From: Lachnospiraceae bacterium
GTDB lineage: Bacteria > Bacillota > Clostridia > Lachnospirales > Lachnospiraceae
Assembly: GCA_017479285.1 (NCBI GenBank)
Contig: JAFVCL010000077.1
Location: forward strand, 1-42,482
DNA: 42,482 nt
Direction: 5' to 3'
Shown here one piece after another: positions 767-16,521 of this stretch. A model generated the notes under the pieces. The model was given only the letters and a program-made list of their open reading frames with translations, had not been told where the DNA came from and made no database searches. The position numbers and the translations under genes are program-made. Position 1 is the first letter of the stretch. Every line of letters starts with the position of its first letter.

Positions 767-808
767 ATTCATAACTGTATCAAATCCTCCTATTGATCGA
801 ATATATGT

Positions 809-918
809 CCCGCCATCGGCAGGCTCGGCTACTCGCTCAGGTTGGCACCTTCCTTAAAGGGGTTGCCGTGGCTTCTTAGGTCCTATGTACCTCCACCAGC
901 TCTGAATAAGAGAACGCT
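809..918 (-). promoter_or_regulatory. SAM riboswitch (SAM-I clan, possibly SAM-I/IV type)
   Basis: The minus strand has the conserved SAM-I core: AGAGCTGGTGGAGG, then a GGT/ACC hairpin, then GAAGCCACGGCAACC, a short P3 and GGTGCCAACC. This core binds S-adenosylmethionine and controls metK. Unusually, no P4 hairpin follows the GGTGCCAA segment. The sequence CTGAGCGAG that follows directly can pair with CTTATTCAG at the 5' end to form P1. A separate hairpin, CCTGCC-GAT-GGCGGG (809-823), comes after P1. That order resembles the SAM-IV and SAM-I/IV groups more than classic S-boxes. Being a SAM riboswitch is certain; the subtype is inference from hand folding. Confidence 0.93.
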
Positions 919-2483: not shown

Positions 2484-3245
2484 ATGATCAGACTTATACT
2501 TGTAGGGATATTTCTCATTGTTTTTCTCGTCCTGTCGACTCCGGCGATGCTTGTAACCTGGATCATCGGTAAATTTAACAAAAGAGCGGGTGACAGAGCC
2601 TCTCTCTGGATTGTAAACAGGATTGGCTTTAGAACTGTTCAGTTTCTTGCCGGTGTTAAGGTAAAGGTCATCGGACACGACCGTATTCCGGATGAGCCGG
2701 TCCTCAATATCTGCAATCACAGAGGCTTTTTTGACACCATTACCTCCTATCAGCTTGTCAAAAATCCCACCGGATATGTTGCAAAGAAAGAAATACTCTA
2801 TGCACCCCTTCTCAATCTTTGGATGATTCTTTTGCACTGCCAGTTTCTCGACAGGAAAAAGCCCCGCTCCGGAATGGATATGCTGCTTAAATCCATTGAC
2901 CTTATAAAGAGCGGAATCTCGGTATGTATCTTCCCGGAGGGAACAAGAAACAGGGATGCGGAGAGTGACGAACTGCTGCCGTTCCACGCAGGTTCCTTTA
3001 AGATTGCCACAAAAACGGGGGCGCCCATAGTCCCTGTTACCCTTATAAACGCCGGTAAAGTCTGGGAAGACCACTTCCCATGGATGCACGGCAAGAATAT
3101 GGTTATCGAATACGGCGGGCCCATAATTACAAAGGATCTCTCCAGGGAAGAGCTTAAAAATGTCTCAGAGATCACAAGGGACATCATCCAGAAAACCTAC
3201 ATCAAAAATAAAGCAGAATATGCAGATTTCCTTAACGCACGATAA
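2484..3245 (+). CDS. plsC: 1-acyl-sn-glycerol-3-phosphate acyltransferase family protein
   Basis: This 253-residue membrane-associated enzyme belongs to the PlsC/LPLAT family, which acylates lysophosphatidic acid to phosphatidic acid in phospholipid synthesis. An N-terminal membrane segment (residues 2-28) precedes the catalytic NHRGFFD box (His79, Asp84) and the substrate-binding FPEGTRNR box (150-157). The ATG follows AGAAGGA. It is transcribed divergently from murA and ends in a two-way terminator shared with the giant lipoprotein gene. A second family member lies at 39730-40476, so exact substrate preference is open. The gene symbol is by family only. Confidence 0.88.
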   Translation: MIRLILVGIFLIVFLVLSTPAMLVTWIIGKFNKRAGDRASLWIVNRIGFRTVQFLAGVKVKVIGHDRIPDEPVLNICNHRGFFDTITSYQLVKNPTGYVAKKEILYAPLLNLWMILLHCQFLDRKKPRSGMDMLLKSIDLIKSGISVCIFPEGTRNRDAESDELLPFHAGSFKIATKTGAPIVPVTLINAGKVWEDHFPWMHGKNMVIEYGGPIITKDLSREELKNVSEITRDIIQKTYIKNKAEYADFLNAR

Positions 3246-3278
3246 ATAATCAAAAAATATAAATATCCAGACATACCC

Positions 3279-3313
3279 AAAAAAGGAAGACGCCGCAAAG
3301 CGCCTTCCTTTTC
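3279..3313. terminator. Bidirectional terminator between convergent genes
   Basis: GGAAGACGC / GCGCCTTCC form a stem (one A-C mismatch on plus, G-U on minus) around CGCAAA. It is followed by TTTT on plus and TTTTTT on minus. It serves the plus-strand acyltransferase and the minus-strand giant lipoprotein. Confidence 0.85.
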
Positions 3314-3328
3314 TGTCATCAAAAAACT

Positions 3329-6300
3329 TTAGTCTCTGTAGAAAACTATCTTACTCGGAGGAGCGATATAATCATTCTTATCGCCTTCAAAATCATCAGA
3401 AAGCTCATAGGATATATCATATTCCCTGCCCGGTTCTATTTCTGCAAATGTCATTTCCTCGTCGAAGGAAGGGATATATTCATATATCTGTTCATAAGTG
3501 CTTCCGTCAAATACCCTGAGGAAAATGCAATCCAAAAGCAAAGCGTCCACAGGAATATCCGTTATACTGTCTGTCAGTTTAAATCTGATAACACCATCCG
3601 ATACCGCCACAATACTTGAAGTATACCAGTTGTCATCACCCTCCTCAGCGGGATATCCGTTATAATAAAGATTTTCATCATGTATGAACTCTACATCTTT
3701 TGTATGCGTAGTAAATCCGTTTTCTGAAGTAAATGTAGCGGTATATGTCTTTATTCCCGGCACAGTCCCGTTAAGCGGTCTTGTAATCTCACAGGTTATG
3801 TCTACTGTGGTTTCACTGATTTCATGTCCGCATACTGTACATATCTTTACTCCGGTACATGATTCATAATTACTTCCCCAGGTGTAAACCGGATTTCCGT
3901 ATGTATGCAGCCCTGTAGCAGACTTTCCTTTTTCTGTTTTCTTTTCGCCACAGTTCTTACATGTATATGTTATTTCCTCATCATGCACACAGTCTGCATG
4001 GATCGTTATTTTTCCCGAATCCCAGCTGTGTCCTGTGGCAGGTATTATTTCCGTATAAGTCGCTTTGCAGTCCCTGCAAGTATAGGTCATCACTCCGTCA
4101 TGTTCACAATCCGCTTCGGTGGTCACTACTCCGGAATCCCAGTTGTGTCCTGAACCCTTGACTTTCTCTACCCTTGTTTCACCACACTCGGAACATGTAT
4201 ATGTTATCTCTTTTTCACGCGAGCAATTACCCTCAAATGTGACAACTCCATCATCCCATTTGTGACCTGTCGCAGGTATGCTTTCCGTGTAGGTTTCCCC
4301 ACAATTCTTGCAGGTAAATGTCACCACGCCTTCACTCTCACATCCGGCCTTCTTTGTTACGGCTCCCTCATACCAATCATGTCCTGTCGCAGGTATGCTT
4401 TCCGTGTAGGTTTCCCCGCCATTCCTGCAGGTAAATGTCACCACGCCTTCACTCTCACATCCGGCCTTCTTTGTTACAACTCCCTCATCCCAATCATGTC
4501 CGGTTACCGGTATGCTTTCCGTGTAAGTGCTGCCGCAGTTAAGACAGGTAAATGTCCGTGTGCCGTCTTCGGTACAGGAAGCCGCTTTTGTCACGCTTCC
4601 ACCGTCCCATCTGTGGCTGCTGCAATACCAGTCAGCTGTAAATACCACATCCATATACGGAAGCACAACATTTTGACCCGGATCGTACTGCTCATCCGAC
4701 ATTCCGGAACCCTCCGGCGCATGGAAATGCCATTTCAGTCCGTATCCCTGACCGGATCTTGTGGTGTTCTCGTAGTCCGGAGTTGTTACGATCCGCCTGC
4801 CCTCCATATCGACCTTCTCTACCAGGGTATCTCCGTCCATGAAGGTTGCGGTGTAGCTAACAGGTTCATACACAACCTGAAGCTTTATATCTCCTGCGGG
4901 AACAGTCATTGAATCCTCAAGTTCTACAAGACCCTCCGCAGTCTCCAGATACCACTTATCTGTAAGATTCCTGTTTATATTTCTCGGGAACCATGGATTG
5001 TTCCTTATTACGCTTCCGTATTCCGCATAAGTCGACGCAAGAAGCCTATCCTCGAAGTACCAGCTTATCCTGTACTTTTGCGGCTGAAGCTTTGCGGTTA
5101 TAACCGCATCCCTTGCAGGCATTACATATTTATAGCCCTCTGTAAGGATATCCGGAACATAGTACGGAAGGGCAAGATCCTTTGACATATCCGAGGTATC
5201 CCAGTACAGAATGTAATACCCATCCTCTGCATCTGTATCCGGAGCCGAAAGGGGAATCCTGTAATATGCCCCAACCTCCTCGGTTTTTATCTTATTATCA
5301 TCAAGCGCCCAGCTGAGGTTATAGGTCTTTGCCTTGACATAATAGTCGACAACAACGGACTTATCCTCCATAACGGAATTCTCGTCAAACTCCTTAAACT
5401 CGGCGTTTGCGGTATCCTCAGCTGTTTCCTTTCTGTCAATCAGGACAAAATCCTCATATTTCTTTAAAAGCTCATCGGCATCCGAAAGGGCGGAAGCTAT
5501 TTTTTCTCCCATTGCGACATTCTCTTTCCTGCCGTAACCGAGAAGTGTTCCCATCTCCCCTGCCATATTCGGGTCACCCCATACACGCCATGTGACATCG
5601 CTTGCAATATGGTCGTAGTAGATCTTGACAACGGTTTCTTCGGCTCCCATCAGGAAGTAGAGAGTACCTTCTCCCTTCTCTATCGTGTCATAGATGTTTT
5701 GTCCGTAGTTGTTGAGGTTATCGAAGGCGGCATCGAGATTATTCTTCATCTCTTCTATCTCCGCCCTATTCTTTCCGGTACTATAGTATGCTTTAACCTG
5801 GCGGTTGTATTCTTCCAGTAGTTCATTATATTTTTCACGAAGTACCGAAACATCTTCGAATTCCGCTTTTGCAAGACGATATCCGTCGTACTTGTATGTG
5901 AAATCCTCATCCACGATAATATCGTATTCTATTCCGTTAAAGCCGTCGAACTCGCCTTCCTCCTTAAGCTCATACTCGCCTGAACCGGGCTCCTTTTCAA
6001 CATAGTATTCAACCGTTGCGGCAGCCGGAGTGCCCTCCCAGTGGAGCTTTACTGTACGCCGGATTTTCATAGTGTTAAATCCGAAGGTACTGTTCTTATA
6101 TGTGAAGGTAACCTCGCCCCAAATCTCCTTAGTAACTGCACTTGCGGGCTTAACGAGAACTTCGTTTGTCGCAGGAAGATAGACAAAGGAGCAGGTATCG
6201 AGTCTTTCTCCGTCCTCATCCGTGTCATGGCACTCTATGATGAAATGCTCCTCATCATACTGGGTATAGGTACGACCGCGTGTCGTAAAGGATGTTCCTT

Positions 6301-9300
6301 CACCGCAGCTTTGTGCCGAATCCATCTCCTCCTCGGAAACCTCGCCGGATTTCATATCCATCATATTTATCTTGTAGAGGTCATCCGGCATTTTTACACT
6401 GCTCTTGCCCTTCTCGTATTCTATGTCAAGGCTGTCATCGTTCTTCTCGATCGTAAAGTCAAGAGGCACCGCCTCTGCTCCGAGCTTAACCAGAGGCCAG
6501 GTGTTCTCATAAAGCGATATTTCCTTCGAAAACCTGCCTTCTCCAAGCTGCGCCACGAAATTGATCTCGAGATATATACCGACCTCAAAGTATAGCGAGC
6601 CCATAGCCCCCGAGGTCGAGCCCTGACCGGAGGTCCACTCGTACCACACATACAAAAATCCGTATACTTCAGCATAAAGTCCAAGTTCGGCGGTCACACC
6701 GATGGAAGCGAGCTTTGTGCTGATGATTCCGAGGCGCACATCAATCCTTATACCGACCCTTATGCCGATCATACCGAAAGCATAGAAGTCTGCCCTGAAG
6801 TGAGGTGTTGCAAGGTCAGCCTGACTCGAGTACTTCTCATCCTCGCCCCTTGCGAACACATATTTCCTTACATGGTAGGTAAACTGCTTTGCGTTCTCAT
6901 ATGATATGCCTGTACCTATCATGGCATTAAGCTTGAAGGAAACCACGAAGTATGCGCCGATGCTGAATTCTACAAGGTGGAAGGGATCCACGGGTGTAGC
7001 GAATGTACCGATCTCCTTATTTACAAGATCAATATACTCAGCGTCATTTCCGAGCATTGCGGAATACTTATCGGGAAGACTGCCACCCACTCCGGGAGAG
7101 CTGTTCTCCATAAGTCCGCCTTCCTCGTTTTTCTGGCCGCCTTCCCACTGTGCGCCGGCTCCTGAACCCGCTGCTTTCTTAAGGTCTGCCAGCTTCTTTA
7201 ATGAATCCCCGGACTTTATGAGATTCTTTACTGTATCCTCTCGCTTATACTTTCCGTCGCCGGCATTGTCGTTGTACTCCTTGACCATGTCAGCAAATTC
7301 GCCTTGGTTTTCATCCTCTGCGCCCTTGGTCATAATGGTTACATTGAGACCGATTCCGGTATAGGTTCCGCACTCAAATGTGGGGTCTATATCAATATAC
7401 GCAAGATAAGGGATGAATCCTAAAGCATACCCCCACTTACCCTTGACATTGATCGCAGGGCTGATAAGAACCTCCTGCTCAAAGACAACCATGGGAGTTA
7501 TCTCAATATTTCCCGCCTCGCCGAGGGAAATGGTTATCTTTAATGATACCGTCACCTCAGCCCTCAGACCTGCTTTTCCTTCAAAATGCTGGAGCGCTCC
7601 GCTTATCACAAAGGCGACATTTACATCATCAACCTTTACCTTCTCACCGCCATCCGCGAGACGCCTTACCTCCTCGAAGGTAATCTCCTCACCGTCAGCA
7701 GTCTTAAACTGCATCTGCTCAAGCTTGTCCCTGTTCTTATACTTTTCAAGGTCAGCCTCATCGGAGAGGATTGCCGTGCACAGATAATCACTTGCCTCAT
7801 CTACCAGATTGCTTCTCTCGATCTCCTCAAGCATTGACTGCTTGATCTCTTCCTCATCTATCTCGCTGAGCTCGGGAGCAACCTCGCCGGTCTTCATATA
7901 AAGATTTACTGAGGAAACCACCTCTTCGACAGGTGCGTCGGCAAACTCAACTGTATAATTTCCGCCATCCCCGCTGACGGATAAAACCTTCGCGTATCCC
8001 TCAAATTCGATGCCTTCGGAGGAATCTATACTTGAACGGTCATCCAGATTTCCTACATAAAATGCAAGATAATCTCCCTCTTTTATCGTCTCCTCCTCGG
8101 AAAATCCGAGGACATCTCTTAATTCCTTATCAAATTTAAGCTCCGCATAAGGGATGACCGCAGCGGAATCCCCACTTCTTCTTTCGCTCTTAACGGGTAT
8201 GATCCTCGGAAGCGCGATAACTTCTTTTAAGTCCGCGCTTTGATAATCAAACTTTCCGCTTCCCTTATCAGCCGTGATCTCGAAATATCCAACCTCCCCG
8301 TCAACGCTTCTGTCCACGTTAAGCGTCCCGTCATAAACCGCGATAACGGAGCCTTCCGTAAGAGCTTCCGGACCTTTGTACTCTAATGTACCCTTTATCT
8401 CCCTTTCGGTCGTTACACTGTTTCCGTCACCGTCCACGGATATCTCTAAAAGACTCCCGAGAGTAACACCGCTTACCTCATTTGCAGGTATAAAGATCAC
8501 ATCACCGCCAACCGCAAGGTTCTTCTTTTCCTCGCAGCCCACCGTGAAATTGTAATAAGTTATATACTGCGAGCATATCTCCTCCCCGAAAACGAAGCGC
8601 AGACGCTCGGTGTTTAATATCTCAGCCTGGAAGAGGTCGCCCTCGGCCCATCCCTCCTCTGAAGGTCGTATCGTATATCTCGAAGTCTCCCTGAAGGTGG
8701 AATTTGCCTTTACGATATCGCTTAGCCTTAGCACCTCCTCGATGCTGAGCCCTGCATCCTCTCTCCAGTACCTCTCAAGGCTGTCATCCCCTGAGAGTCC
8801 ATATATCTCCTTAAGCTCATTTTCCGTATAACTGCCTATCTCCGCCATCTCCGAGAGCACGGATTCTTCAAGCTGTGCATCCCCTGTTTTCCCGGCCTGA
8901 TCCTTATAGAAGGCCTCTCTCTCCTCAGGCGCATAAATGAGCACAAGCCTGTAAACGGTATCCATATCAAGACCCATTGAATAAAGCCTGCCCATTACAT
9001 CGGTCTCGGGCTCCTCACGGTTTAAATCTATAAGATTTCTGACATAAAAAACCAGTTTTTCCGGAACCATTCCGCTCAGTGCCGCATCCGTATTTTCTTC
9101 GATGATATACGGCATTTCCTCATCACCTGTGGTAAGATCCTTAACTTTAAGTATCTGCTTCAGTTCTTCGGGCGAGAGACCATAGGCGGACACCTCGATG
9201 CTGTAATCGGAGCTGACATCGGTTCCCGATACAAAATTCATATCAAAGACATTCGTCATACCCTCGGGGCTGTCGAACATAGGATACAGAGTAAGGTTTT

Positions 9301-9616
9301 CAATTATCTCCGCGTCATCCGGCGCCGGCTTTAACCCCTTCGAGTCATAGGAATATCCCATGAATATGCCGCTTGTACGGTTAGAAGCGGGAAGCTCCCC
9401 GATAAGAGTTCCCTTCTTTACCGTAACAGACTCCGGAAGCGAGGTCTCCTCTATATCAAACTCGGATGCATCCTCTGCGAGGGCGAAACTGACTGTGAAG
9501 TTTTTCTTAAAGATGTCAAAAAAACTCCCGCCGCCATTTCCGCACCCGGTAAGCACGGTCGAAGCCTGTGCCACGATCAGTATTACAGATAAGATTTTTT
9601 TAAGCTTAAGTTTCAT
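3329..9616 (-). CDS. Giant repeat-rich surface lipoprotein, function unknown
   Basis: A 2095-residue predicted lipoprotein. The N terminus has basic residues, a hydrophobic stretch and a lipobox LTGC with Cys25 as the lipidation site. The first part (about 38-115) and residues about 1430-1660 resemble InlB-type B repeats found in Gram-positive surface proteins. The middle (about 680-1110) is rich in beta strands with alternating hydrophobic residues. Residues 1668 to about 1935 hold six 39-residue repeats plus a divergent seventh, of the form H-x-W-D-x-G ... C ... Y/F-T-C-x-x-C-G ... I-P-A-T-G, which look like small zinc-ribbon or disulphide modules. The ATG overlaps the stop of the upstream 115-residue gene by 4 bp (ATGA), so the two are probably translationally coupled. 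I recognise no enzyme domain. Adhesion or envelope sensing are guesses. Confidence 0.9.
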   Translation of the reverse strand: MKLKLKKILSVILIVAQASTVLTGCGNGGGSFFDIFKKNFTVSFALAEDASEFDIEETSLPESVTVKKGTLIGELPASNRTSGIFMGYSYDSKGLKPAPDDAEIIENLTLYPMFDSPEGMTNVFDMNFVSGTDVSSDYSIEVSAYGLSPEELKQILKVKDLTTGDEEMPYIIEENTDAALSGMVPEKLVFYVRNLIDLNREEPETDVMGRLYSMGLDMDTVYRLVLIYAPEEREAFYKDQAGKTGDAQLEESVLSEMAEIGSYTENELKEIYGLSGDDSLERYWREDAGLSIEEVLRLSDIVKANSTFRETSRYTIRPSEEGWAEGDLFQAEILNTERLRFVFGEEICSQYITYYNFTVGCEEKKNLAVGGDVIFIPANEVSGVTLGSLLEISVDGDGNSVTTEREIKGTLEYKGPEALTEGSVIAVYDGTLNVDRSVDGEVGYFEITADKGSGKFDYQSADLKEVIALPRIIPVKSERRSGDSAAVIPYAELKFDKELRDVLGFSEEETIKEGDYLAFYVGNLDDRSSIDSSEGIEFEGYAKVLSVSGDGGNYTVEFADAPVEEVVSSVNLYMKTGEVAPELSEIDEEEIKQSMLEEIERSNLVDEASDYLCTAILSDEADLEKYKNRDKLEQMQFKTADGEEITFEEVRRLADGGEKVKVDDVNVAFVISGALQHFEGKAGLRAEVTVSLKITISLGEAGNIEITPMVVFEQEVLISPAINVKGKWGYALGFIPYLAYIDIDPTFECGTYTGIGLNVTIMTKGAEDENQGEFADMVKEYNDNAGDGKYKREDTVKNLIKSGDSLKKLADLKKAAGSGAGAQWEGGQKNEEGGLMENSSPGVGGSLPDKYSAMLGNDAEYIDLVNKEIGTFATPVDPFHLVEFSIGAYFVVSFKLNAMIGTGISYENAKQFTYHVRKYVFARGEDEKYSSQADLATPHFRADFYAFGMIGIRVGIRIDVRLGIISTKLASIGVTAELGLYAEVYGFLYVWYEWTSGQGSTSGAMGSLYFEVGIYLEINFVAQLGEGRFSKEISLYENTWPLVKLGAEAVPLDFTIEKNDDSLDIEYEKGKSSVKMPDDLYKINMMDMKSGEVSEEEMDSAQSCGEGTSFTTRGRTYTQYDEEHFIIECHDTDEDGERLDTCSFVYLPATNEVLVKPASAVTKEIWGEVTFTYKNSTFGFNTMKIRRTVKLHWEGTPAAATVEYYVEKEPGSGEYELKEEGEFDGFNGIEYDIIVDEDFTYKYDGYRLAKAEFEDVSVLREKYNELLEEYNRQVKAYYSTGKNRAEIEEMKNNLDAAFDNLNNYGQNIYDTIEKGEGTLYFLMGAEETVVKIYYDHIASDVTWRVWGDPNMAGEMGTLLGYGRKENVAMGEKIASALSDADELLKKYEDFVLIDRKETAEDTANAEFKEFDENSVMEDKSVVVDYYVKAKTYNLSWALDDNKIKTEEVGAYYRIPLSAPDTDAEDGYYILYWDTSDMSKDLALPYYVPDILTEGYKYVMPARDAVITAKLQPQKYRISWYFEDRLLASTYAEYGSVIRNNPWFPRNINRNLTDKWYLETAEGLVELEDSMTVPAGDIKLQVVYEPVSYTATFMDGDTLVEKVDMEGRRIVTTPDYENTTRSGQGYGLKWHFHAPEGSGMSDEQYDPGQNVVLPYMDVVFTADWYCSSHRWDGGSVTKAASCTEDGTRTFTCLNCGSTYTESIPVTGHDWDEGVVTKKAGCESEGVVTFTCRNGGETYTESIPATGHDWYEGAVTKKAGCESEGVVTFTCKNCGETYTESIPATGHKWDDGVVTFEGNCSREKEITYTCSECGETRVEKVKGSGHNWDSGVVTTEADCEHDGVMTYTCRDCKATYTEIIPATGHSWDSGKITIHADCVHDEEITYTCKNCGEKKTEKGKSATGLHTYGNPVYTWGSNYESCTGVKICTVCGHEISETTVDITCEITRPLNGTVPGIKTYTATFTSENGFTTHTKDVEFIHDENLYYNGYPAEEGDDNWYTSSIVAVSDGVIRFKLTDSITDIPVDALLLDCIFLRVFDGSTYEQIYEYIPSFDEEMTFAEIEPGREYDISYELSDDFEGDKNDYIAPPSKIVFYRD
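4266..4499 (-). repeat. Two adjacent near-identical 117-bp repeats inside the lipoprotein gene
   Basis: Bases 4266-4382 and 4383-4499 match with six differences in 117. Each copy encodes one 39-residue Cys repeat. The other repeats of the series are much more diverged, so this pair is a recent duplication. The second copy on the plus strand (4383-4499) has Gly1733 where the paired copy has the second Cys of the C-x-x-C motif. Confidence 0.9.
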
Positions 9617-9960
9617 GATTCTTCTCCGGTATCTTCTTTATCTCTGTTTTTTTCTTGGAATCTATCTTTGCTTCTTTGTTTAAAGATCAATATTGCAACC
9701 ACTACTCCGACCACAAACGAAACCACAGCCGCAAGCACATATCCCCCCGCCGAGCCCGGCATGAGAAACGAGCCGTAGGAGGTTAGCCCCGCTTCATGCC
9801 CTCCGCTGCCGGCCGAGAGATATCCCGTACCGATCGTAGCCAGCGATGTAAGCAAAATGCCGGTCAGCAAAAGGTATATCTTTAATTTTTCCCTTTTTCT
9901 TTTAATTTTCCTGCTTCGTTTAAGAATCTCCGAAACAGCTTCATCCTTTGTATATTTCAT
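9613..9960 (-). CDS. Small two-TM membrane protein upstream of giant lipoprotein
   Basis: A 115-residue protein with a strongly basic cytoplasmic N terminus, TM helix 1 at about residues 27-46, a short Gly/Ser-rich outside loop, TM helix 2 at about 74-95, and a charged tail. The chosen ATG (MKYTKDEAVSEIL) follows AGAGG with a 9-nt gap. An ATG 14 codons upstream at 10002 has a poorer site. The stop overlaps the lipoprotein start by 4 bp. The second half resembles the 55-residue protein at 11643-11810: both have YGS, then GY, then a helix with a FV-x-G-x-x-V pattern and a polar tail. That links this unit with the sigma-factor operon next door. No known family recognised. Confidence 0.75.
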   Translation of the reverse strand: MKYTKDEAVSEILKRSRKIKRKREKLKIYLLLTGILLTSLATIGTGYLSAGSGGHEAGLTSYGSFLMPGSAGGYVLAAVVSFVVGVVVAILIFKQRSKDRFQEKNRDKEDTGEES

Positions 9961-10053
9961 ATAAAAATACCTCTTATACTTGTTAATTGCGGGAATCTGC
10001 ATTTTTACTCACTTAAATCTAAATTTTTTTCCACAGGTTTTAAGTACATCTGT

Positions 10054-10082
10054 TTTATACATAAACTTCGCTTAAAGAACAA
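10054..10082 (-). promoter_or_regulatory. Candidate promoter of the membrane protein-lipoprotein unit
   Basis: Minus strand TTGTTC (10077-10082), 17-nt spacer, TATAAA (10054-10059). It lies just after two hairpin terminators and about 90 bp before the 115-residue gene. The -35 is weak, so activation may be needed. Confidence 0.45.
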
Positions 10083-10096
10083 AACTCCTCGCGGAG
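10078..10096 (-). terminator. Short second terminator with GCGA tetraloop
   Basis: Minus strand CTCC-GCGA-GGAG (10085-10096) is followed by TTTTGTT. The stem is only 4 bp but closes on a stable GNRA loop. It lies about 45 bp beyond the UUCG terminator and may act as a backup. Confidence 0.5.
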
Positions 10097-10109
10097 CGTT
10101 TAGCATTAA

Positions 10110-10143
10110 AAATAGTTCGGATAACTTTCCTGTAAAGTAAAAA
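10110..10143 (-). repeat. 33-nt post-terminator element, copy 2
   Basis: Minus strand carries TTTACAGGAAAGTTATCCG and a following AACTATT directly after the T-run of the UUCG terminator. It matches 702-735 with about five substitutions over 33 nt and shares its position relative to the terminator. Role unknown. Confidence 0.6.
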
Positions 10144-10163
10144 CGCACCCCGAAGGGTGCGCA
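10138..10163 (-). terminator. UUCG-loop terminator of the cell-wall/sigma operon
   Basis: Minus strand GCGCACCC-TTCG-GGGTGCG then TTTTT. A GC-rich 7-8 bp stem with the extra-stable UUCG loop and a T-run, about 70 bp downstream of the protease gene stop. A strong intrinsic terminator that ends the long operon. Confidence 0.92.
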
Positions 10164-10233
10164 TAATATATATACTATGAATAAAGTCTTAATTTATGTT
10201 TTGTTATCCCTTTTATAATTATGATATTAGGGA

Positions 10234-10863
10234 TTACAGTTTTTTTACGAATCTCCTGTAGGGAATAAAAAGTACGGCTGCGGACAGAAGCGGCATTGCA
10301 TACCCTATATAGGACGAAACACCGGATTCGGAGACCAGAAGGTTATACAGCGCGTGGAATATCATCGAAAGAGAGAGCGCTCCGACAATACCCGAAAAAG
10401 ACAGCGCCTTGAACTTCTTTAAAAGTACCAGCGCCAGGGACAGCATGAGAGTACATACTATATGCATAACTCCCACCGCAAGTCCTCTTATAAGGATGTA
10501 GAGCAGACTCCCCGCCCCGGAGGACAGAATGTAGCAACAGTTTTCGAAAGTGGCAAAGCCTGCTCCTATGCCCACCGAGAAGAGCATAAGGTCACCGCTC
10601 TCAGGTATAAACATAACAAGATAAAAAAGAATCGGGAGCAGCTTCATGATCTCCTCTATGATGGGAGACAGGAAAACAGCGGTCTCGTCAGCGGTCATCT
10701 TCGATACATATTCCATAAATCCGCCGATATACGCAGCGATAAGACATATAACCATCCCTATAAGAAAGGCCGTAACAAACCGCCTTGCACTCTTTTTCAG
10801 AAAAAATACCGACACAAAAAGCGGCACCGCTATACATATAAGGATATTTTCAGCATAGATCAT
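10234..10863 (-). CDS. PrsW-family intramembrane metalloprotease
   Basis: A 209-residue polytopic membrane protein with the conserved residues of the PrsW/CAAX-protease-like family: EE-x-x-K at Glu70-Glu71-Lys74, F-E-N at 106-108, His134, and H-x-x-x-N at His170/Asn174. In Bacillus subtilis PrsW makes the first cut in anti-sigma factor RsiW and so releases an ECF sigma factor; this is established for that protein and only inferred here. Length is close to the family norm. The ATG overlaps the end of the upstream membrane-protein gene by 14 bp, so the pair is coupled. It is the last gene of the operon that contains an ECF sigma factor, which supports a role in sigma activation. Confidence 0.85.
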   Translation of the reverse strand: MIYAENILICIAVPLFVSVFFLKKSARRFVTAFLIGMVICLIAAYIGGFMEYVSKMTADETAVFLSPIIEEIMKLLPILFYLVMFIPESGDLMLFSVGIGAGFATFENCCYILSSGAGSLLYILIRGLAVGVMHIVCTLMLSLALVLLKKFKALSFSGIVGALSLSMIFHALYNLLVSESGVSSYIGYAMPLLSAAVLFIPYRRFVKKL

Positions 10864-11641
10864 TTTTCATAACCTCCCTTCTGAAGGTCAGATATAAAAG
10901 AGGCAGAATAAGAGTCAGCGTTATAAGCGAAACAAAGTAAACAACTCCCGGACTCATATACATCGTAAATACATTCCATACAAATGCGATCAGACTGAAA
11001 GTGAACGCGGCGGGATTTTTATTCTCCCTGTACCTGCGGACAGTCATATATACAAAATATATAAGCACAAGATACATTAAAGCATAGCTTACATACTCAA
11101 GCACCCGGGTCAGCGGATTACCGATATATGTGGAGAGAGCCTGAAAAGCAATCACAAGAGTCGATACCGCTGCGATCACCGGTCCTGCCGGTCTTTCGGG
11201 AATTCCCTCCTTTGGAGCTGTCCGAACGATCGATACGGCAAGTACCCCCACCGCAAACCCGGTCATTATATCCTGCAGCCACTCACCCGACCATATTATC
11301 CAGAGCGCCGTATTTACAGCGGTAAACAGGATCACATACAGCATTTCCGGCACGGAAGCCCCTGCTTTTTCCTTTTTCAGCGAGGACAGACCGGTTGCCA
11401 GAAGCAGAAAAAAAGCCCATTCTCCTATCTCATTGGCGGCGATCGGCATACGCATTCCATAGCGGAGTGTGTCGAAAGTCAGCCAATACAGATCGCTGAG
11501 AAGCAGGCTGACAAACGCAAATGTAAAAAAAACCGTGAGAAGCACATTGTTTCCACGGGTTACAAGTCTTGCGGACAAAAAAATGACCACAACCACCACA
11601 AGTATCTGAAAAATAGAAAACACATTGTTTACTACAGTCAT
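10850..11641 (-). CDS. Polytopic membrane protein of the sigma operon, unknown
   Basis: A 263-residue protein with about eight or nine hydrophobic helices and short loops; the last residues are basic and probably cytoplasmic. The start is an ATG one base after the stop of the 55-residue gene, and its end overlaps the protease gene by 14 bp, so translation is likely coupled. I recognise no catalytic motif. In this position it could be a membrane sensor, a partner of the protease, or an unusual sigma-binding protein; none of these is shown by the sequence. The hydrophobic pattern is reminiscent of sensor domains such as 7TM regions of histidine kinases, but no kinase part follows. Confidence 0.8.
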   Translation of the reverse strand: MTVVNNVFSIFQILVVVVVIFLSARLVTRGNNVLLTVFFTFAFVSLLLSDLYWLTFDTLRYGMRMPIAANEIGEWAFFLLLATGLSSLKKEKAGASVPEMLYVILFTAVNTALWIIWSGEWLQDIMTGFAVGVLAVSIVRTAPKEGIPERPAGPVIAAVSTLVIAFQALSTYIGNPLTRVLEYVSYALMYLVLIYFVYMTVRRYRENKNPAAFTFSLIAFVWNVFTMYMSPGVVYFVSLITLTLILPLLYLTFRREVMKNDLC

Positions 11642-11642
11642 T

Positions 11643-11810
11643 TCAATCCTCGTTTGAGTCTTTTGAGCCTCTTATCCTTCCGATCTGTATACACAGCATT
11701 GTAACTAGAATTCCCAGTACAAAAGCAAGCACACCTACTATCGCATATCCGACATAAGCGTTATGTAGTATAAGGCTTCCGTAGCGGATCAGTTCCTCAA
11801 TACTTCGCAT
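11643..11810 (-). CDS. 55-residue single-pass membrane protein overlapping sigma gene
   Basis: This small gene starts at the ATG 11808-11810, inside the last codons of the ECF sigma gene (14-bp overlap, different frame), and stops one base before the next start. The product begins MRSIEELIRYGSLILHN, has one TM helix at about residues 20-42, and ends in a polar tail, GRIRGSKDSNED. A GGAAAGGA ribosome binding site lies about 11 nt upstream. Tight packing on both sides, and similarity to the second half of the 115-residue protein at 9613-9960, argue that it is real. Its place directly after the sigma gene is where an anti-sigma factor is usually encoded, but it is far too short for a known anti-sigma domain. 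Confidence 0.75.
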   Translation of the reverse strand: MRSIEELIRYGSLILHNAYVGYAIVGVLAFVLGILVTMLCIQIGRIRGSKDSNED

Positions 11811-12369
11811 AGTTAAAGCCATTCCTTTCCAGCGCCTTTTTCAGAGCCTCTTTTCCCCTCGCCGTTAAATTATAGACCTGCTTGCTGCTCTTCTTTAATA
11901 CCCGTGCTATTTCCTCGGGCTTCATGTCCTCAAAATAAGTAAGAAACAAAACCTGTCTGTAGTCTGGATTTATCTCCTCCAGCGCTTCGTACAGCTGCCG
12001 TCTCTCTTCCTTTTCAAACAGCTCCGGCTCCGGCAGCGAGGTCTCCGAGCAGATTTCCTCATCCAGCTCCGTAAACACGAGCCTTCTCTTTCTGAGAAGC
12101 ATTCTTGCCTTATTTTGGGCTATGGCAAAAAGCCAAGTTTTAAAGCTGCAGTCCCTGCGGGGCGTATAGCTTACCGTCTCGGAGGCGATAACCGCAAAGC
12201 TGTCTATCATAAGCTCCTCGGCATCCTCCATGCTCTGCACCATCCCGTTCAGGAACAGAGTAAGACTCCTGCCGTGCCTTTCGAGCAGCTCCCTTAGCAG
12301 ACCTTCATCATGCTCCTTCAAAAAACGGCTGTATAAAATTTCATCAGTAATATCTTTGTAGGATGTCAT
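11797..12369 (-). CDS. RNA polymerase sigma factor, ECF subfamily
   Basis: A 190-residue sigma-70 family protein of the extracytoplasmic-function type. Region 2 covers about residues 18-95 (FLKEHDEGLLRELLERHG through FKTWLFAIAQNKARMLLRKRR), and region 4 about 125-185, with a helix-turn-helix around KPEEIARVLKKSSKQVYNL. Regions 1 and 3 are missing, as expected for ECF factors. It starts 57 bp after the murF stop with no terminator between, so it is probably in the same transcript as lipoprotein-ddl-murF. Three membrane-protein genes follow with overlaps, the last a PrsW-type protease. This suggests control by regulated proteolysis at the membrane. The promoter set it controls is not known; I found no convincing AAC/CGT-type ECF promoter here. 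Confidence 0.92.
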   Translation of the reverse strand: MTSYKDITDEILYSRFLKEHDEGLLRELLERHGRSLTLFLNGMVQSMEDAEELMIDSFAVIASETVSYTPRRDCSFKTWLFAIAQNKARMLLRKRRLVFTELDEEICSETSLPEPELFEKEERRQLYEALEEINPDYRQVLFLTYFEDMKPEEIARVLKKSSKQVYNLTARGKEALKKALERNGFNYAKY

Positions 12370-12426
12370 GCAGACCGTATCCCTTTTCGCTTAATAAGGT
12401 CTCAAAAAATAACGGCAGGGCATTTG

Positions 12427-13929
12427 TCAGAAGGCTTCCCTGATTGCCCTGACGATCTCCTCAAAGTGCATGCCGTGGGATGCCTTTACAAGCACGGCGG
12501 AGCCCGGAATAATAAGCTCTCTCTCCTCAGCGGGACGGGCAAGATCCTCTGTGATCCCCTTTATGGCATCATCCCTTGTCTTCCAATAGCCGATGTATTC
12601 GACATTTTTATCCTTCCCATTTTCAAAAGCTTCTCTGGCTCCTTCGGAGATATATTCTCCCAGCTCTCCTACGCAGTATATCCTGTCTATTCCGAGTCCT
12701 GCGGCATACTCTCCGACCTCGCGGTGCATATTCTTTTCGTTCTTTCCCAGCTCAAACATATCGCCCATGATGGCTATCTTCTTTCCCTTGGCCAGCATGA
12801 GAAGATCCAGCGAGGATTTCATCGAAACGGGATTGGCGTTATAGCAGTCATCGATCAGGGTAATATCACCGACGGTTACTATATTGTTCCTCCCGGCGAT
12901 GGGTTTCATATTCTCTATCCCGGACTTTATCTCCTCCGGCGTCAGCTCCATAAGTATCGCTACCGCGGAAGCCGCCGCCGCGTTTATAACCATATGATGT
13001 CCCGGAAGCGGAACATTTACCCTGAGCCTTTCGGAAATATCCATCTGCTTTCCGGAGCGCACTCCCTTCCCGGAATAATTCAGTTCAAAGACAGCGTCCG
13101 ACCCGAAAAGACCGTTATCCGTACATTCGCTGACAGAAACCGCAAGGGATTTTACGGATTCCTTTTCCCCGAAAAATACAGGCTCATTATCCGCCACCGG
13201 ACCTACCGTAACCAGCTTGTCATCCCCTCCGAAAAGCACCGCTCTGCCTCCCTCGCGAAGAGAGCTGAATATCTCGGTTTTTGCCTTAAGGATCCCATCC
13301 CTGGTTTTAAGATTCTCCAGATGGCACTGACCGATATTGGTGATAACCGCGATATCGGGCTGAACCATCTCCGTCAGCCTCGTCATCTCCCCGAAATCAC
13401 TGATTCCCATCTCTATCACGGCAAGCTCATGCTCCCCGCGTATCCTGAGAAGTGTAAGCGGAACACCTATTTCGTTGTTAAAATTTCCCTCGGTCTTAAG
13501 TACATTATATTTCTCTGACAATACACCCGCGATAAATTCCTTGGTACTGGTCTTTCCGACGCTTCCGGTTATCCCGACGAAAGGAATGGATAGCTTTTCC
13601 CGGTATGCCTTTGCGATCCTTTTAAGAGCGATAAGCGAGTCCTCAACGATTATATAACTTCCCCATTTTTCAGGCTCTGTCCCAAAGCAGACCTTAACCT
13701 GCTCCGGATCCATCTCGCATATTACCAGCGAGGCTCCCTTTTCAAAAACCTGTCCGATAAAGGAATGTCCGTCGCTTCTCTCGCCCTTTTGCGCGATGAA
13801 GACCGCATCCTTATCCACAAGTCTCGAATCAAGATACACTCCGCTGACCTTTTTTGACTCCGCGTCTTTATCTGTAAAAACGGCTCTTCCGCCGCATGCC
13901 TTAGCTATATCTCCGATCGTCAGTTCCAT
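12427..13929 (-). CDS. murF: UDP-N-acetylmuramoyl-tripeptide--D-alanyl-D-alanine ligase
   Basis: MurF adds D-Ala-D-Ala to the UDP-MurNAc-tripeptide, finishing the cytoplasmic peptidoglycan precursor. The 500-residue product has the Mur-ligase N-terminal uridine-binding domain (1-110), the ATP P-loop GITGSVGKTSTKE (119-131), the central domain with EMGISDFGEM and TNIGQCHLE, and the C-terminal ligase domain with DDCYNANPVSM. It begins 15 bp after the ddl stop, so substrate supply (Ddl) and use (MurF) are coupled. Slightly longer than the typical 450-480 residues. Downstream comes the ECF sigma factor. Confidence 0.97.
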   Translation of the reverse strand: MELTIGDIAKACGGRAVFTDKDAESKKVSGVYLDSRLVDKDAVFIAQKGERSDGHSFIGQVFEKGASLVICEMDPEQVKVCFGTEPEKWGSYIIVEDSLIALKRIAKAYREKLSIPFVGITGSVGKTSTKEFIAGVLSEKYNVLKTEGNFNNEIGVPLTLLRIRGEHELAVIEMGISDFGEMTRLTEMVQPDIAVITNIGQCHLENLKTRDGILKAKTEIFSSLREGGRAVLFGGDDKLVTVGPVADNEPVFFGEKESVKSLAVSVSECTDNGLFGSDAVFELNYSGKGVRSGKQMDISERLRVNVPLPGHHMVINAAAASAVAILMELTPEEIKSGIENMKPIAGRNNIVTVGDITLIDDCYNANPVSMKSSLDLLMLAKGKKIAIMGDMFELGKNEKNMHREVGEYAAGLGIDRIYCVGELGEYISEGAREAFENGKDKNVEYIGYWKTRDDAIKGITEDLARPAEERELIIPGSAVLVKASHGMHFEEIVRAIREAF

Positions 13930-13944
13930 GTTTTTCCCCTATCT

Positions 13945-15033
13945 TTATTTTATCGCCATAGCTATTATCTTCTCGCAGAGCTCTTCGAAGCTCATTCCCA
14001 CAGCGGCAGCCTCCTGCGGAAGAAGTGAGGTCGGGGTCATTCCCGGCAATGTATTGCACTCAAGGCAATAAATGTTTCCGTCACTGTCCATCATAAAGTC
14101 CATTCTCGCATAGCTGCGGTATCTTAACGCTCGGAAGGCTCTTTCCGCAAGACTCTTAAGCCTTAAAGCGGTCTCCTCCGGGATATCCGCCGGACAGGTC
14201 TCAACGGTACTGTCTGCCTGGTACTTGTTCTTATAATCGTAAAATCCCTGCTTCGGAGCTATTTCAATAGCGGGGAGCGCCTCTCCGTCAATTACGCTGA
14301 CGGCAAATTCTCTTCCCTTGATATACTGCTCAACCACAGCCTGGGTGTCATACTTAAACGCTTCGTCACAGGCCGCATCAAACTCCGACCTTTCGTTTGC
14401 GATACTTACACCGACGGAGGAACCGCCGTTTGTGGCTTTTACAATACAGGGAAATACAATATCTTCCTCGCTACCGTTCTCGGCTACGTATTTATCAAAG
14501 ATCACGCTGTGCTTATGACCGCTGCCTGCATCCTTGAAATTCTCTTTTCTGTAGATCACTATTCCCTTGGGAGTCGGAATATCCCATGCCCTGAAAAGAT
14601 CCTTGGTAACGGTCTTGTCCATCGCCATGGCCGCGCTCTCAAAATCCGTTCCGGTGTATGTAATACCCAGCAGTTCGAATGCCGCCTGAACCTTTCCGTC
14701 CTCTCCGCCTACACCGTGAAGCGCCATAAAGACCACATCCGCCTCCTGGCAAAGCTTTATTACATTAGGTCCGAAGAAATTCTTATCTCCGTCCGGACGC
14801 ATTGCCTTTATCTTTGACACATCGGGATTTACGGAGGAAACAGCGCTTATGGAAGCGGCCCAGTCCCTGTCGGAATCAAAGATACCTTCGGTCTCTCCCT
14901 CATATCCGAGATAAACATCAAGTATTATCGCCCGGTGTCCGTTTTTCCTCAGCGCTTTATAGATCATGCTTCCCGTGACGAGAGATACATCTCTCTCCGT
15001 ACTGATTCCGCCTGCCAAAACTACAATTTTCAT
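13945..15033 (-). CDS. ddl: D-alanine--D-alanine ligase
   Basis: Ddl joins two D-alanines with ATP hydrolysis, supplying MurF. The start is taken at the ATG of MKIVVLAGGISTERDVS, the family's usual N terminus; the reading frame is open to 15072. The product has 362 residues. ATP-grasp features are visible: HGVGGEDGKVQ, KATNGGSSVGVS, and the C-terminal metal and substrate site ECNTLPGMTPTSLLPQEA. The segment GFYDYKNKY carries the Tyr typical of D-Ala-D-Ala ligases, not D-Ala-D-Lac ligases of vancomycin-resistant type. The gene lies 20 bp after the lipoprotein gene and 15 bp before murF. Confidence 0.96.
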   Translation of the reverse strand: MKIVVLAGGISTERDVSLVTGSMIYKALRKNGHRAIILDVYLGYEGETEGIFDSDRDWAASISAVSSVNPDVSKIKAMRPDGDKNFFGPNVIKLCQEADVVFMALHGVGGEDGKVQAAFELLGITYTGTDFESAAMAMDKTVTKDLFRAWDIPTPKGIVIYRKENFKDAGSGHKHSVIFDKYVAENGSEEDIVFPCIVKATNGGSSVGVSIANERSEFDAACDEAFKYDTQAVVEQYIKGREFAVSVIDGEALPAIEIAPKQGFYDYKNKYQADSTVETCPADIPEETALRLKSLAERAFRALRYRSYARMDFMMDSDGNIYCLECNTLPGMTPTSLLPQEAAAVGMSFEELCEKIIAMAIK

Positions 15034-15053
15034 TTTCTGCCACTTTTCCCTTT

Positions 15054-16445
15054 CTACCAAGAATAGTTCCATATAACGGGGGCTGAAGGATCAAGCTTTC
15101 CGTTATTTTCAAGCCACGCAAGCCACGCAAAGACCGCGATCGCGTCCGAAGGATAGCTTTCGGTCAGATCATAAACACAGGAATCGCTGTTTCTGCCGGA
15201 AAGATAGTGTACGATGTTTATGATATTCTCGTTATACTCGTATCCGTCAAGAATGTAATTCATCGCGGCAAATTTCTGCGCGTCCAGAAGAAGCTCTTCA
15301 GGATCCTTTTCCTTTATCCCATCCACCTCATAGAGAGTCCTATCTTCATTCATATCCCGGCAATTATACAGCAGAGTCTCCATAAGGACATCACAAAAAT
15401 CTCTGTCAACAGGGTGTCTTGTGGTCATATACCCCATTGCTCCGTTCAGTAGATATTTCGAGGAATACAAGTCCTCGACGGCCTCTATAGTTTCCGACAT
15501 CCGGTATAATTCATCCGCATACGCCTTTATTGCGGAGGTTCTGTAAAGCTCCACCAGTGCAAGGAACGCCACATATCCTTCTTTTCCGGCATCTGCCCTC
15601 TCCCCGGTCTGTGAAGCTGTTTCTCCCGGGATCGCTGTATTTTGGGCATCCCCGACTTTCTTGTACATAGCGGATGCCTTCTGGATACACTCGGTGGCGA
15701 GTTTTTCCTCCACCGTATTATAGTTGTATCCGAATTTTGCAAGGATCGCTATCGCAATATAACCATCGGTTCCCTCAAAGGAGTCGAAATCGGTTCTTCC
15801 TATCCACTCCCCTACTGCGCCGAGTACATCGGGCGCGTCCTCCTTGAGGGCATAGAGAACATCCTTGTACCTTTCGAAAGTGTATAAAAGCGAGTATACC
15901 TCCCAGAGCTCCGCATTACCGTCTTTTATCTTCTCACACTCGGAGTTTATAAGATTCCAGTATATATCACGATAGTAGCTCCCGCTTATATCAAACGAAT
16001 ATGAACTGCCTATACTTTCCGCGAAAATGTAATATCTCCCATCCTCCGGGATATTCTCGAAGGGCAGCCTTGCGCTGTAAATCCCCGTAGTCCCGTCATA
16101 CTGGATTTCCTCCGGGGTTCCGATATACACGCTCTCCTCTGTATCAACATCAAGGACACAATATTTCTCCGGAAGTCTCGTCGAATAACAAAGGGCATAT
16201 TTAACTTCGTCCTGGCAGTACCCTTTCCTGTCTACAAGCACACCCGGAAGCATCTCCGGAAGCTCGTACTCAAGGACCGGCGAGCTCTCCATCGAAAGCT
16301 TTTCGTTCTCCTGCTTTTCATAGGTGTATGTAATAAGCGCATTATCGCTGTCCGTTGTAAGCCCGCAGGCCTGGAAAAACACTGCTGACGCCAATAAAAG
16401 TGACATCACGGAATATGCGGTTTTTCTTTTGAAAAATCTACACAT
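15054..16445 (-). CDS. Lipoprotein with GH9-type N-terminal Ig domain
   Basis: A 463-residue predicted lipoprotein: basic start (MCRFFKRKTAYS), hydrophobic segment and lipidation Cys27 in FFQACG. Residues about 60-150 resemble the immunoglobulin-like domain found before the catalytic domain of family 9 glycoside hydrolases (GYCQDEVKYAL ... FENIPEDGRYYIF ... SSYSFDISGSYYRD). The remaining helical part is compatible with a six-hairpin fold and ends with YLSGRN, but the usual D-A-G-D catalytic motif is not visible, so it may bind glycan without cutting. The chosen ATG has AGGGATGA as ribosome binding site; a TTG start at 16490 is possible but less likely. First gene of the ddl-murF-sigma operon. 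The GH9 link is a moderate-confidence reading. Confidence 0.8.
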   Translation of the reverse strand: MCRFFKRKTAYSVMSLLLASAVFFQACGLTTDSDNALITYTYEKQENEKLSMESSPVLEYELPEMLPGVLVDRKGYCQDEVKYALCYSTRLPEKYCVLDVDTEESVYIGTPEEIQYDGTTGIYSARLPFENIPEDGRYYIFAESIGSSYSFDISGSYYRDIYWNLINSECEKIKDGNAELWEVYSLLYTFERYKDVLYALKEDAPDVLGAVGEWIGRTDFDSFEGTDGYIAIAILAKFGYNYNTVEEKLATECIQKASAMYKKVGDAQNTAIPGETASQTGERADAGKEGYVAFLALVELYRTSAIKAYADELYRMSETIEAVEDLYSSKYLLNGAMGYMTTRHPVDRDFCDVLMETLLYNCRDMNEDRTLYEVDGIKEKDPEELLLDAQKFAAMNYILDGYEYNENIINIVHYLSGRNSDSCVYDLTESYPSDAIAVFAWLAWLENNGKLDPSAPVIWNYSW

Positions 16446-16454
16446 AAAATAATC

Positions 16455-16521
16455 ATCCCTGTATGCGGAGCCCGTCTGAATATCTTTCAAACATGTTATT
16501 ACCCATACAGAGATGATTATA
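16455..16521 (-). promoter_or_regulatory. Operon promoter and leader inverted repeat
   Basis: Minus strand TGG-TATAAT (-10 at 16516-16521) is an extended -10 promoter without a good -35. Around the start point the arms ATCTCTGTATG (16504-16514) and CATACAGGGAT (16455-16465) can pair over 11 bp with one G-U, across a 38-nt spacer. The second arm contains the ribosome binding site of the lipoprotein gene. It could be an operator or a hairpin hiding that site. Confidence 0.55.

What the first reader, a model, noticed from the sequence alone, without database searches (positions are those of the whole stretch)
10234..16521. Peptidoglycan precursor genes in one operon with an ECF sigma factor and a PrsW-type protease
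Seen: lipoprotein, ddl, murF, ECF sigma, 55-residue TM protein, polytopic protein and PrsW-like protease follow with gaps of 57 bp or less, or overlaps, behind one promoter and before one UUCG terminator. Known: PrsW in Bacillus cleaves anti-sigma RsiW to free SigW. Inferred: a self-contained envelope-stress circuit that couples D-Ala-D-Ala supply to sigma activity. No classical anti-sigma is present, so the protease target would be new.
Basis: partly seen in the sequence, partly recalled or inferred. Interest (0 to 1): 0.85.

Follow-up and report, generated by a model that had tools for sequence, protein, structure and literature searches.

The report
Surface-protein sigma switch parked behind murF
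The cell-wall genes here only happen to sit beside a travelling gene set, found in many gut Clostridia, that appears to switch on giant surface proteins through its own promoter code; the proposed link to cell-wall supply is not supported.

Summary
In the five congeners that have both, the sigma-PrsW block and ddl-murF lie on different contigs; in six of nine fetched neighbourhoods murF is followed directly by plsC. The real unit is sigma - short membrane protein (TM2_A) - P263 - PrsW - second short membrane protein (TM2_B) - large secreted protein, reaching past the terminator to 3329. Of the best 80 PrsW loci 77 have the sigma, 78 P263, 67 TM2_B, none ddl or murF. TGAGTAAA-N13-GCAAYTAA precedes TM2_B (window 9983-10011). 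Sigma residue 167, in the presumed region 4.2 helix, tracks -35 base 3: Asn with A 48 of 48, His with G 13 of 13. Ten genomes hold 20 exact sites, against none for a reversed or a longer-spaced pattern. In one congener the only close site lies on another contig, before its TM2_B-protease-lipoprotein operon. Best reading: a portable ECF/PrsW circuit for surface proteins, with TM2 as probable anti-sigma (unproven). A new variant of a known kind.

The parts
11797..12369 (-). ECF sigma factor, 190 aa; residue N167 in the presumed region 4.2 recognition helix, M90 in presumed region 2.4
   Evidence: Sigma70_r2 and r4_2 above Pfam cut-offs; orthologues 57-73% in 5 congeners; residue-base covariation
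11643..11810 (-). TM2_A, shortened form (55 aa): family start MRSxxE joined to YGSLIL plus the second TM helix; first TM and most of the cytosolic segment missing
   Evidence: alignment with full-length TM2 proteins; 13 other loci have short forms of 35-54 aa in this slot
10850..11641 (-). P263, polytopic membrane protein, candidate sensor or PrsW partner
   Evidence: 78 of 80 loci; no Pfam family is matched by more than 3 of 60 members; no PDB relative, best E 0.35
10234..10863 (-). PrsW-family intramembrane protease, 209 aa
   Evidence: PF13367 71.4 bits; E70, E71, H134 and H170 invariant in 8 sequences
10143..10162 (-). intrinsic terminator (CUUCGG loop) between PrsW and TM2_B
9983..10011 (-). 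predicted promoter of this sigma: TGAGTAAA-N13-GCAATTAA, 0 mismatches
   Evidence: the only site with up to 1 mismatch in the genome
9613..9960 (-). TM2_B, 115 aa, two TM helices, N-terminal segment MKYTKDEAVSEILKRSRKIKRKRE; candidate anti-sigma and PrsW substrate (the ORF also opens at 10002)
   Evidence: homologue in 67 of 80 loci, alignment A7
3329..9616 (-). giant lipoprotein, 2095 aa, lipobox LTGC; predicted main target of the sigma
   Evidence: 56-75% identical homologues behind the cassette in 4 congeners; lipobox; no Pfam family at E 0.01
12427..13929 (-). murF: neighbour, not part of the conserved module
   Evidence: TIGR01143 385 bits; on another contig than the cassette in all five cassette-bearing congeners
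13945..15033 (-). ddl: neighbour, not part of the conserved module
   Evidence: with murF in 9 of 9 fetched neighbourhoods
15054..16445 (-). lipoprotein with a CelD_N domain: travels with ddl-murF
   Evidence: upstream of ddl in the 8 of 9 neighbourhoods that reach that far
2484..3245 (+). plsC-like acyltransferase gene, right-hand flank of murF in relatives; the block 3246-12426 lies between the two here
   Evidence: murF next to convergent plsC in G005, G006, G013, G016, G024, G029; the name plsC is from the sequence and recall

Best explanation
The sigma factor, TM2_A, P263, PrsW and TM2_B form a portable ECF signalling cassette that controls large surface proteins. Supported by sequence statistics: the sigma reads promoters of the form TGAGTAAA-N13-GCAAYTAA, which lie in front of TM2_B, giant lipoproteins and other secreted adhesin-like proteins. 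Inferred: TM2_B, and TM2_A where full length, hold the sigma at the membrane through a short N-terminal cytosolic helix. P263 senses an envelope or outside signal and lets PrsW cut TM2 at its short outer loop (YGSxLL). The freed sigma then switches on the surface-protein operon together with new TM2_B, which shuts the response off. In the window's lineage the cassette and its target operon came to lie between murF and plsC, where the cassette may borrow the ddl-murF transcript. That is a matter of position, not cell-wall-precursor signalling.
For: Module: of 80 loci, sigma 77, P263 78, TM2_B 67 (66 of the 74 with at least 700 bp downstream). Promoter: 52 of 66 regions between PrsW and TM2_B score at least 13 of 16, 49 of them with spacer exactly 13, against 2.4 of 66 in shuffles; in front of the sigma gene 3 of 79 against 3.05. 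When the region is let start 60 bp before the PrsW stop (the motif's TGA can be that stop), 63 of 80 loci have it, 60 of the 67 with TM2_B, against 1.15 of 80 in shuffles. Genome scale: sites with up to 1 mismatch are one each in six of six cassette-bearing congeners and none in six without. In G024 that site is on a contig without the cassette, in front of TM2_B - protease - giant lipoprotein. In ten further genomes 20 exact sites, 0 for the reversed pattern, 0 for a 16-bp spacer. Direct recognition: residue 167 N with A 44 of 44, H with G 13 of 13, 48 and 13 with the wider regions and no exception down to score 12; six new loci agree, two of them H/G. Output: 50 of 52 large downstream proteins pass a rough test for a signal peptide or lipobox; four of the six secreted proteins behind exact sites away from a cassette have InlB-like, BspA-LRR or beta-helix repeats.
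Against: No direct evidence that TM2 binds sigma; covariation between sigma and TM2_B is no stronger than between sigma and P263. The motif was first seen by eye in the regions later scored, so searches are partly circular for enrichment; searches are the independent tests. 17 of 80 loci lack it at score 13, 7 of them with TM2_B. More distant relatives (L102, L104-L113, L120, L121) have sigma and, but for L107, TM2_B, but not the motif. In a relaxed scan only three (G093, G135, G343) of 13 family genomes with PrsW had a site beside PrsW, and eight genomes without a listed PrsW match had 7 chance sites. Only 2 of the 7 residue/base switches are forced by well-supported branches. Of 11 exact sites away from a cassette, one precedes a deaminase-like gene and one no clear gene. 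Most genomes are MAGs.
Confidence: 0.62

Rival explanations
1. One reading: an operon that couples D-Ala-D-Ala ligation (ddl, murF) to the sigma and PrsW, as an envelope-stress circuit.
For: Contiguity with gaps up to 57 bp, no terminator found between murF and sigma; PrsW cuts anti-sigma RsiW in Bacillus (passage in PMC3482391; otherwise recalled).
Against: Order not conserved in any of the five congeners with the cassette; ddl or murF in none of 80 loci; no sigma-promoter site at ddl or murF.
Confidence: 0.05
2. PrsW and P263 process or export the large downstream surface protein, as proposed for PrsW-dependent polymorphic toxins, and the sigma is only its transcription factor.
For: Large proteins follow TM2_B behind PrsW in 51 of 80 loci; Zhang et al. 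2012 propose PrsW-dependent export and processing (PMC3482391, passages).
Against: In that proposal PrsW is fused to the toxin; in the window it is a separate 209-aa protein. Downstream proteins have ordinary-looking signal sequences. In G024 cassette and target lie on different contigs, and several target proteins lie away from any PrsW.
Confidence: 0.15
3. P263 or TM2_A, not TM2_B, is the sigma's anti-sigma; TM2_B is part of the output, for example a partner of the giant lipoprotein.
For: Anti-sigma genes usually lie next to the sigma gene (passage in PMC8103513), and TM2_A and P263 do; P263 is in 78 of 80 loci; TM2_B is a predicted target itself.
Against: TM2_A lacks its N-terminal half in 13 loci and the window and was not found in others, while all 67 TM2_B ORFs are at least 98 aa and keep the N-terminal segment in the 55 aligned; P263 has no obvious cytosolic domain (by eye).
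Confidence: 0.25

Closest known systems
Bacillus subtilis SigW-RsiW-PrsW
   Same: ECF sigma plus a PrsW-family protease; regulated proteolysis of a membrane anti-sigma is the likely logic
   Different: No zinc anti-sigma domain found; prsW is in the cassette, with P263 and two short TM2 proteins; predicted regulon is large surface proteins (B. subtilis side recalled)
CnrH-CnrY (class II anti-sigma)
   Same: A very short cytosolic N-terminal segment on a small membrane protein as candidate sigma binder; anti-sigma domains under 50 aa could be class II (PMC7406223, passages)
   Different: Two TM helices; the TM2_B profile gives no CnrY hit in the PDB, though the sigma profile matches CnrH; found in Clostridia with PrsW
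SigI-RsgI systems of cellulolytic Clostridia (recalled)
   Same: Membrane anti-sigma systems that control large surface or secreted proteins
   Different: RsgI is a large protein with outer sensor domains; here sensing would lie in P263, or in the protease fused to the TM2 start in G005
PrsW-dependent polymorphic toxin systems (PMC3482391, passages)
   Same: PrsW near genes for large secreted proteins
   Different: PrsW not fused to the secreted protein; a sigma factor and a promoter code are present

Membership tests
ECF sigma factors | sigma regions 2 and 4 only, small protein | tested here: met
   PF04542 34.8 bits and PF08281 46.6 bits, above cut-offs, 190 aa
ECF sigma factors | assignment to a published ECF group | not testable with these tools
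   the classification paper is not held
PrsW family (PF13367) | profile match above cut-off | tested here: met
   71.4 against 23.5 bits
PrsW family (PF13367) | conserved Glu-Glu and His residues in the membrane core (roles recalled) | tested here: met
   E70, E71, H134, H170 invariant in 8 sequences
PrsW equivalog (NF033739, the SigW protease) | score above the equivalog cut-off | tested here: not met
   35.1 against 225 bits
SigW-RsiW-PrsW system | zinc (HxxxCxxC) anti-sigma next to the sigma gene | tested here: not met
   no Pfam anti-sigma among the window's proteins; 6 same-strand ORFs with HxxxCxxC within 1.5 kb of the modules of the 80 loci and the window, none of them in the window
class II (CnrY-type) anti-sigma | short helical N-terminal domain that binds sigma regions 2 and 4 | tested here: inconclusive
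   short conserved N-terminal segment; sigma-TM2_B covariation at background; structure prediction switched off
conserved ddl-murF-ECF-PrsW operon | same order in relatives | tested here: not met
   0 of 5 cassette-bearing congeners, 0 of 80 loci
PrsW-dependent polymorphic toxin system | PrsW domain fused to the secreted protein | tested here: not met
   PrsW is a separate 209-aa ORF in the window

The most novel reading that the evidence does not exclude
A new class of ECF signalling module found in many gut Clostridia: a two-helix mini anti-sigma (TM2) with a sigma-binding segment of about 25 residues, a new polytopic sensor (P263) and its own PrsW act together on the sigma. It works as a portable switch for giant surface adhesins, with a one-residue/one-base (N167-A, H167-G) specificity code that lets related cassettes stay apart.
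Probability: 0.45. Interest if true: 0.75.

Novelty: new variant of a known kind. Interest (0 to 1): 0.6.

Why it matters
It gives a testable promoter code and target set for a sigma/protease family found in many rumen and gut Clostridia, known mostly from MAGs, and links it to large adhesin-like surface proteins rather than to cell-wall synthesis. One target set lies in a named strain (Lachnospiraceae bacterium G41, locus L173). The N/H167 to A/G correspondence is a clean case for sigma specificity. P263 has no Pfam family and TM2 only weak, scattered matches, so they may be a new way to build PrsW-controlled signalling.

Tried and rejected
Rejected: peptidoglycan coupling; the 55-aa protein as an unrelated novelty (it is a shortened TM2_A); autoregulation of the sigma gene by the same motif as a general rule (3 of 79 regions, as in shuffles; one 1-mismatch site before a sigma gene in G457, L273). 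PrsW ORFs of about 355-400 aa in several loci look like over-long ORF calls; only in G006 did I see a true fusion with P263 (428 aa).

Led nowhere: PDB searches with TM2_B, P263 and PrsW profiles (best E 0.12, 0.35 and none up to 0.1); covariation between sigma, TM2_B and P263; sites with mismatches (2; 1; 1), which are near the reversed-pattern background. Pfam gave TM2_B only weak matches (best E 6e-5 in one of 55 members; the commonest, Rv2743c, in 17 of 55). Six paper searches were seen as listings; none of the listed titles is about this module; the library holds open papers only. For PMC8999054, PMC8103513, PMC7406223 and PMC3482391 I saw passages.

Mended on checking: started the motif region after the PrsW stop and so missed sites that overlap it; one search mends this (four more loci, L177, L183, L188, L190). 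Two loci with TM2_B but no motif, L142 and L169, have Arg at residue 167; at the same spacing they show a G-rich stretch (by eye), which I did not test. One search printed only genes near PrsW, so the claim on ddl and murF now rests on tblastn of the whole loci.

Dropped rows: six duplicate contigs (L122, L123, L125-L127, L133) were replaced by their genome versions; and one search count all 80 loci, including near-copies. One search used 57 rows (56 loci and the window) with a motif score of at least 13 and spacer 13 (53 after removing near-copies for the scores). Of nine out-of-sample loci with a motif, three (L093, L095, L096) are copies of L134, L184 and L188 and were not counted. One search used a cut-off of 1e-60, which only 10 of 30 congeners pass for murF; one search covers 9 of these 10 (G021 was not fetched).
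Full report
OBSERVATION. The seven genes lie on the minus strand at the stated coordinates with gaps of 20, 15 and 57 bp and then overlaps or 1 bp. Pfam and NCBIfam support ddl, murF, an ECF sigma and a PrsW-family protease; the lipoprotein has a CelD_N domain; the 263-residue (P263) and 55-residue proteins have no family. The UUCG-type terminator is at 10143-10162. No terminator or sigma-70-like promoter on the minus strand was found between murF and the sigma gene.

THE CELL-WALL LINK IS LOCAL. Orthologues of sigma, P263 and PrsW occur together in five of 30 congeners searched: G005, G006, G013, G014, G024 (the PrsW profile in 31 genus genomes finds six including the window's own). In all five, murF is on a different contig from the cassette (cut-off 1e-60, which 10 of 30 congeners pass). 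I fetched nine of these ten murF neighbourhoods. ddl precedes murF in nine of nine, and the lipoprotein precedes ddl in all eight that reach it. In six (G005, G006, G013, G016, G024, G029) murF is followed directly by the convergent plsC-like gene that lies at 2484-3245 in the window; G008 and G025 have other genes there; the G014 contig ends just behind murF. So in the window a block of about 9.2 kb (3246-12426) lies between murF and plsC. Elsewhere the cassette sits behind the tmRNA gene (G014 at about 0.2 kb; G013 at about 0.8 kb with two small ORFs between) or near a fragment that reads like a serine recombinase zinc domain (G006; by eye).

THE CONSERVED MODULE. A scan of named genome contigs with the PrsW alignment gave 278 relatives, of which the best 80 were kept, mostly MAGs, many from ruminant guts by their titles, labelled Lachnospiraceae, Clostridiales, Oscillospiraceae and others. 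In these 80, the sigma is present in 77 (73 of the 74 with at least 1700 bp upstream), P263 in 78, a TM2_A in 47 (an undercount: some very short forms are seen only by eye), TM2_B behind PrsW in 67 (66 of the 74 with at least 700 bp downstream), and a protein of over 400 aa behind TM2_B in 51. tblastn finds ddl and murF in none of the 80. A wider family search found PrsW relatives at E 1e-20 or better in 27 of 397 genomes. TM2_A and TM2_B are related short proteins with two TM helices; TM2_B reads MKYxxDEALxEIxxR...KRxxR - TM1 - YGSFLLxxEAGGYVLxAVIAFxLG (55 members). TM2_A is often shortened to 35-54 aa (13 loci) or not found; the window's 55-aa protein is such a form, with the family's start joined straight to YGSLIL. 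In G005 the start of TM2_B is joined to the trypsin-like protease that in G006, G013 and G014 is the next gene (Trypsin_2).

A PROMOTER CODE. In front of TM2_B, often behind a terminator-like hairpin (by eye), stands TGAGTAAA-N13-GCAAYTAA. Of 66 such regions 52 score at least 13 of 16, 49 of them with a spacer of exactly 13; shuffles give 2.4 of 66. In front of the sigma gene it is at the shuffle level, 3 of 79. The motif's TGA can be the PrsW stop codon; with the region widened by 60 bp, 63 of the 80 loci have it (61 with spacer 13), 60 of the 67 with TM2_B, against 1.15 of 80 in shuffles. As I found the motif by eye in these regions, the fair tests are the following. In the window the only match with up to 3 mismatches is 9983-10011. 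In 12 congeners, sites with 0 or 1 mismatch are one each in the six with the cassette and none in the six without; the 24 two-mismatch sites are at the level of the reversed control (25). In G024, whose cassette contig shows no TM2_B behind PrsW, the single site is on another contig, directly before TM2_B, the protease and the giant lipoprotein. In ten genomes reached from the 80 loci there are 20 exact sites and none for the reversed pattern; with a spacer of 16 there is none, and one for its reversed form.

THE SIGMA READS IT. Across 57 rows, -35 base 3 is A in all 44 with Asn at sigma residue 167 and G in all 13 with His; with the widened regions 48 and 13, and down to score 12 it is 52 and 14 with no exception. 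Residue 167 lies in the presumed region 4.2 recognition helix, as expected for -35 contact; residue 90, in presumed region 2.4, varies with -10 bases 2 and 3 (the region assignment is from sequence and recall). On the best sigma tree, made without these two columns, residue and base each switch seven times; only two switches are forced by well-supported branches, and both agree. Six loci not used before agree six of six, two of them H/G. More distant relatives have sigma and nearly all TM2_B but no such motif. In a relaxed scan of 13 PrsW-bearing family genomes only three sites lie beside PrsW, and eight genomes without a listed PrsW match have seven chance sites.

THE OUTPUT. Of 52 large proteins behind TM2_B (51 loci and the window), 50 pass a rough hydropathy and motif test for an N-terminal signal or lipobox; by blastp at 1e-5 they fall into six clusters of two or more and eight single proteins. 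Of the 20 exact sites in ten genomes, eight lie directly behind a PrsW and one (L268) before the TM2_B of a cassette. Of the other eleven, six precede secreted proteins, one a TM2_B followed by a secreted protein, two a 193-aa membrane protein, one a deaminase-like gene (name recalled) and one no clear gene. Four of the six secreted ones carry InlB-like, BspA-LRR or beta-helix repeats, two match nothing. The strain G41 (G451) has five exact sites.

MECHANISM. Supported by sequence statistics: a mobile ECF cassette with its own promoter code and surface-protein targets. Inferred: TM2_B (and full TM2_A) as membrane anti-sigma, PrsW as its protease, P263 as sensor or partner, TM2_B made from the target promoter as negative feedback. 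Support for the anti-sigma step is indirect: conserved cytosolic start, membrane topology by eye, place in the module, reuse of the start on a protease in G005.

COMPARISON. It works like SigW-RsiW-PrsW in outline but lacks the zinc anti-sigma, and its PrsW is far below the equivalog cut-off (35.1 against 225 bits). A class II, CnrY-like anti-sigma is possible but untested. I found no description of the module in the listings of six library searches; the main ECF classification paper is not held, so the group may be listed there.

Noticed in passing
window 787-912, minus strand: SAM riboswitch (RF00162, 63.5 bits) at the left end of the window; in relatives a gene that reads like methionine adenosyltransferase follows murA there (name recalled).
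   Followed up: no
L024:2782-3561: In G005 the TM2_B N-terminal motif is fused to the trypsin-like protease, so the short cytosolic segment is swapped between outer domains.
   Followed up: partly
L142 and L169: Two loci with Arg at sigma residue 167 lack the motif and show a G-rich stretch at the same spacing before GCAACTRA (by eye): perhaps a third specificity.
   Followed up: partly
L077:6557-8321: G014 carries a second TM2_A-P263-PrsW set with no recognisable sigma gene in front; an unrelated 197-aa ORF is there instead.
   Followed up: partly
L023:1563-2849: In G006 P263 has lost its C-terminal part and is fused in frame to PrsW (428 aa).
   Followed up: no
window 15054-16445: The lipoprotein with a CelD_N domain is a constant neighbour of ddl-murF in the genus (the 8 of 9 neighbourhoods that reach it); its role is unknown.
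   Followed up: no
L259:1591-2169 and L269: A 193-aa membrane protein behind an exact sigma site in two genomes (G455 and strain G41); the G455 copy has no Pfam match.
   Followed up: no
80 loci: The sigma gene often follows a same-strand ORF within 60 bp (25 of 72 upstream neighbours, window included, some perhaps spurious ORFs), as if the cassette often borrows other transcripts.
   Followed up: partly
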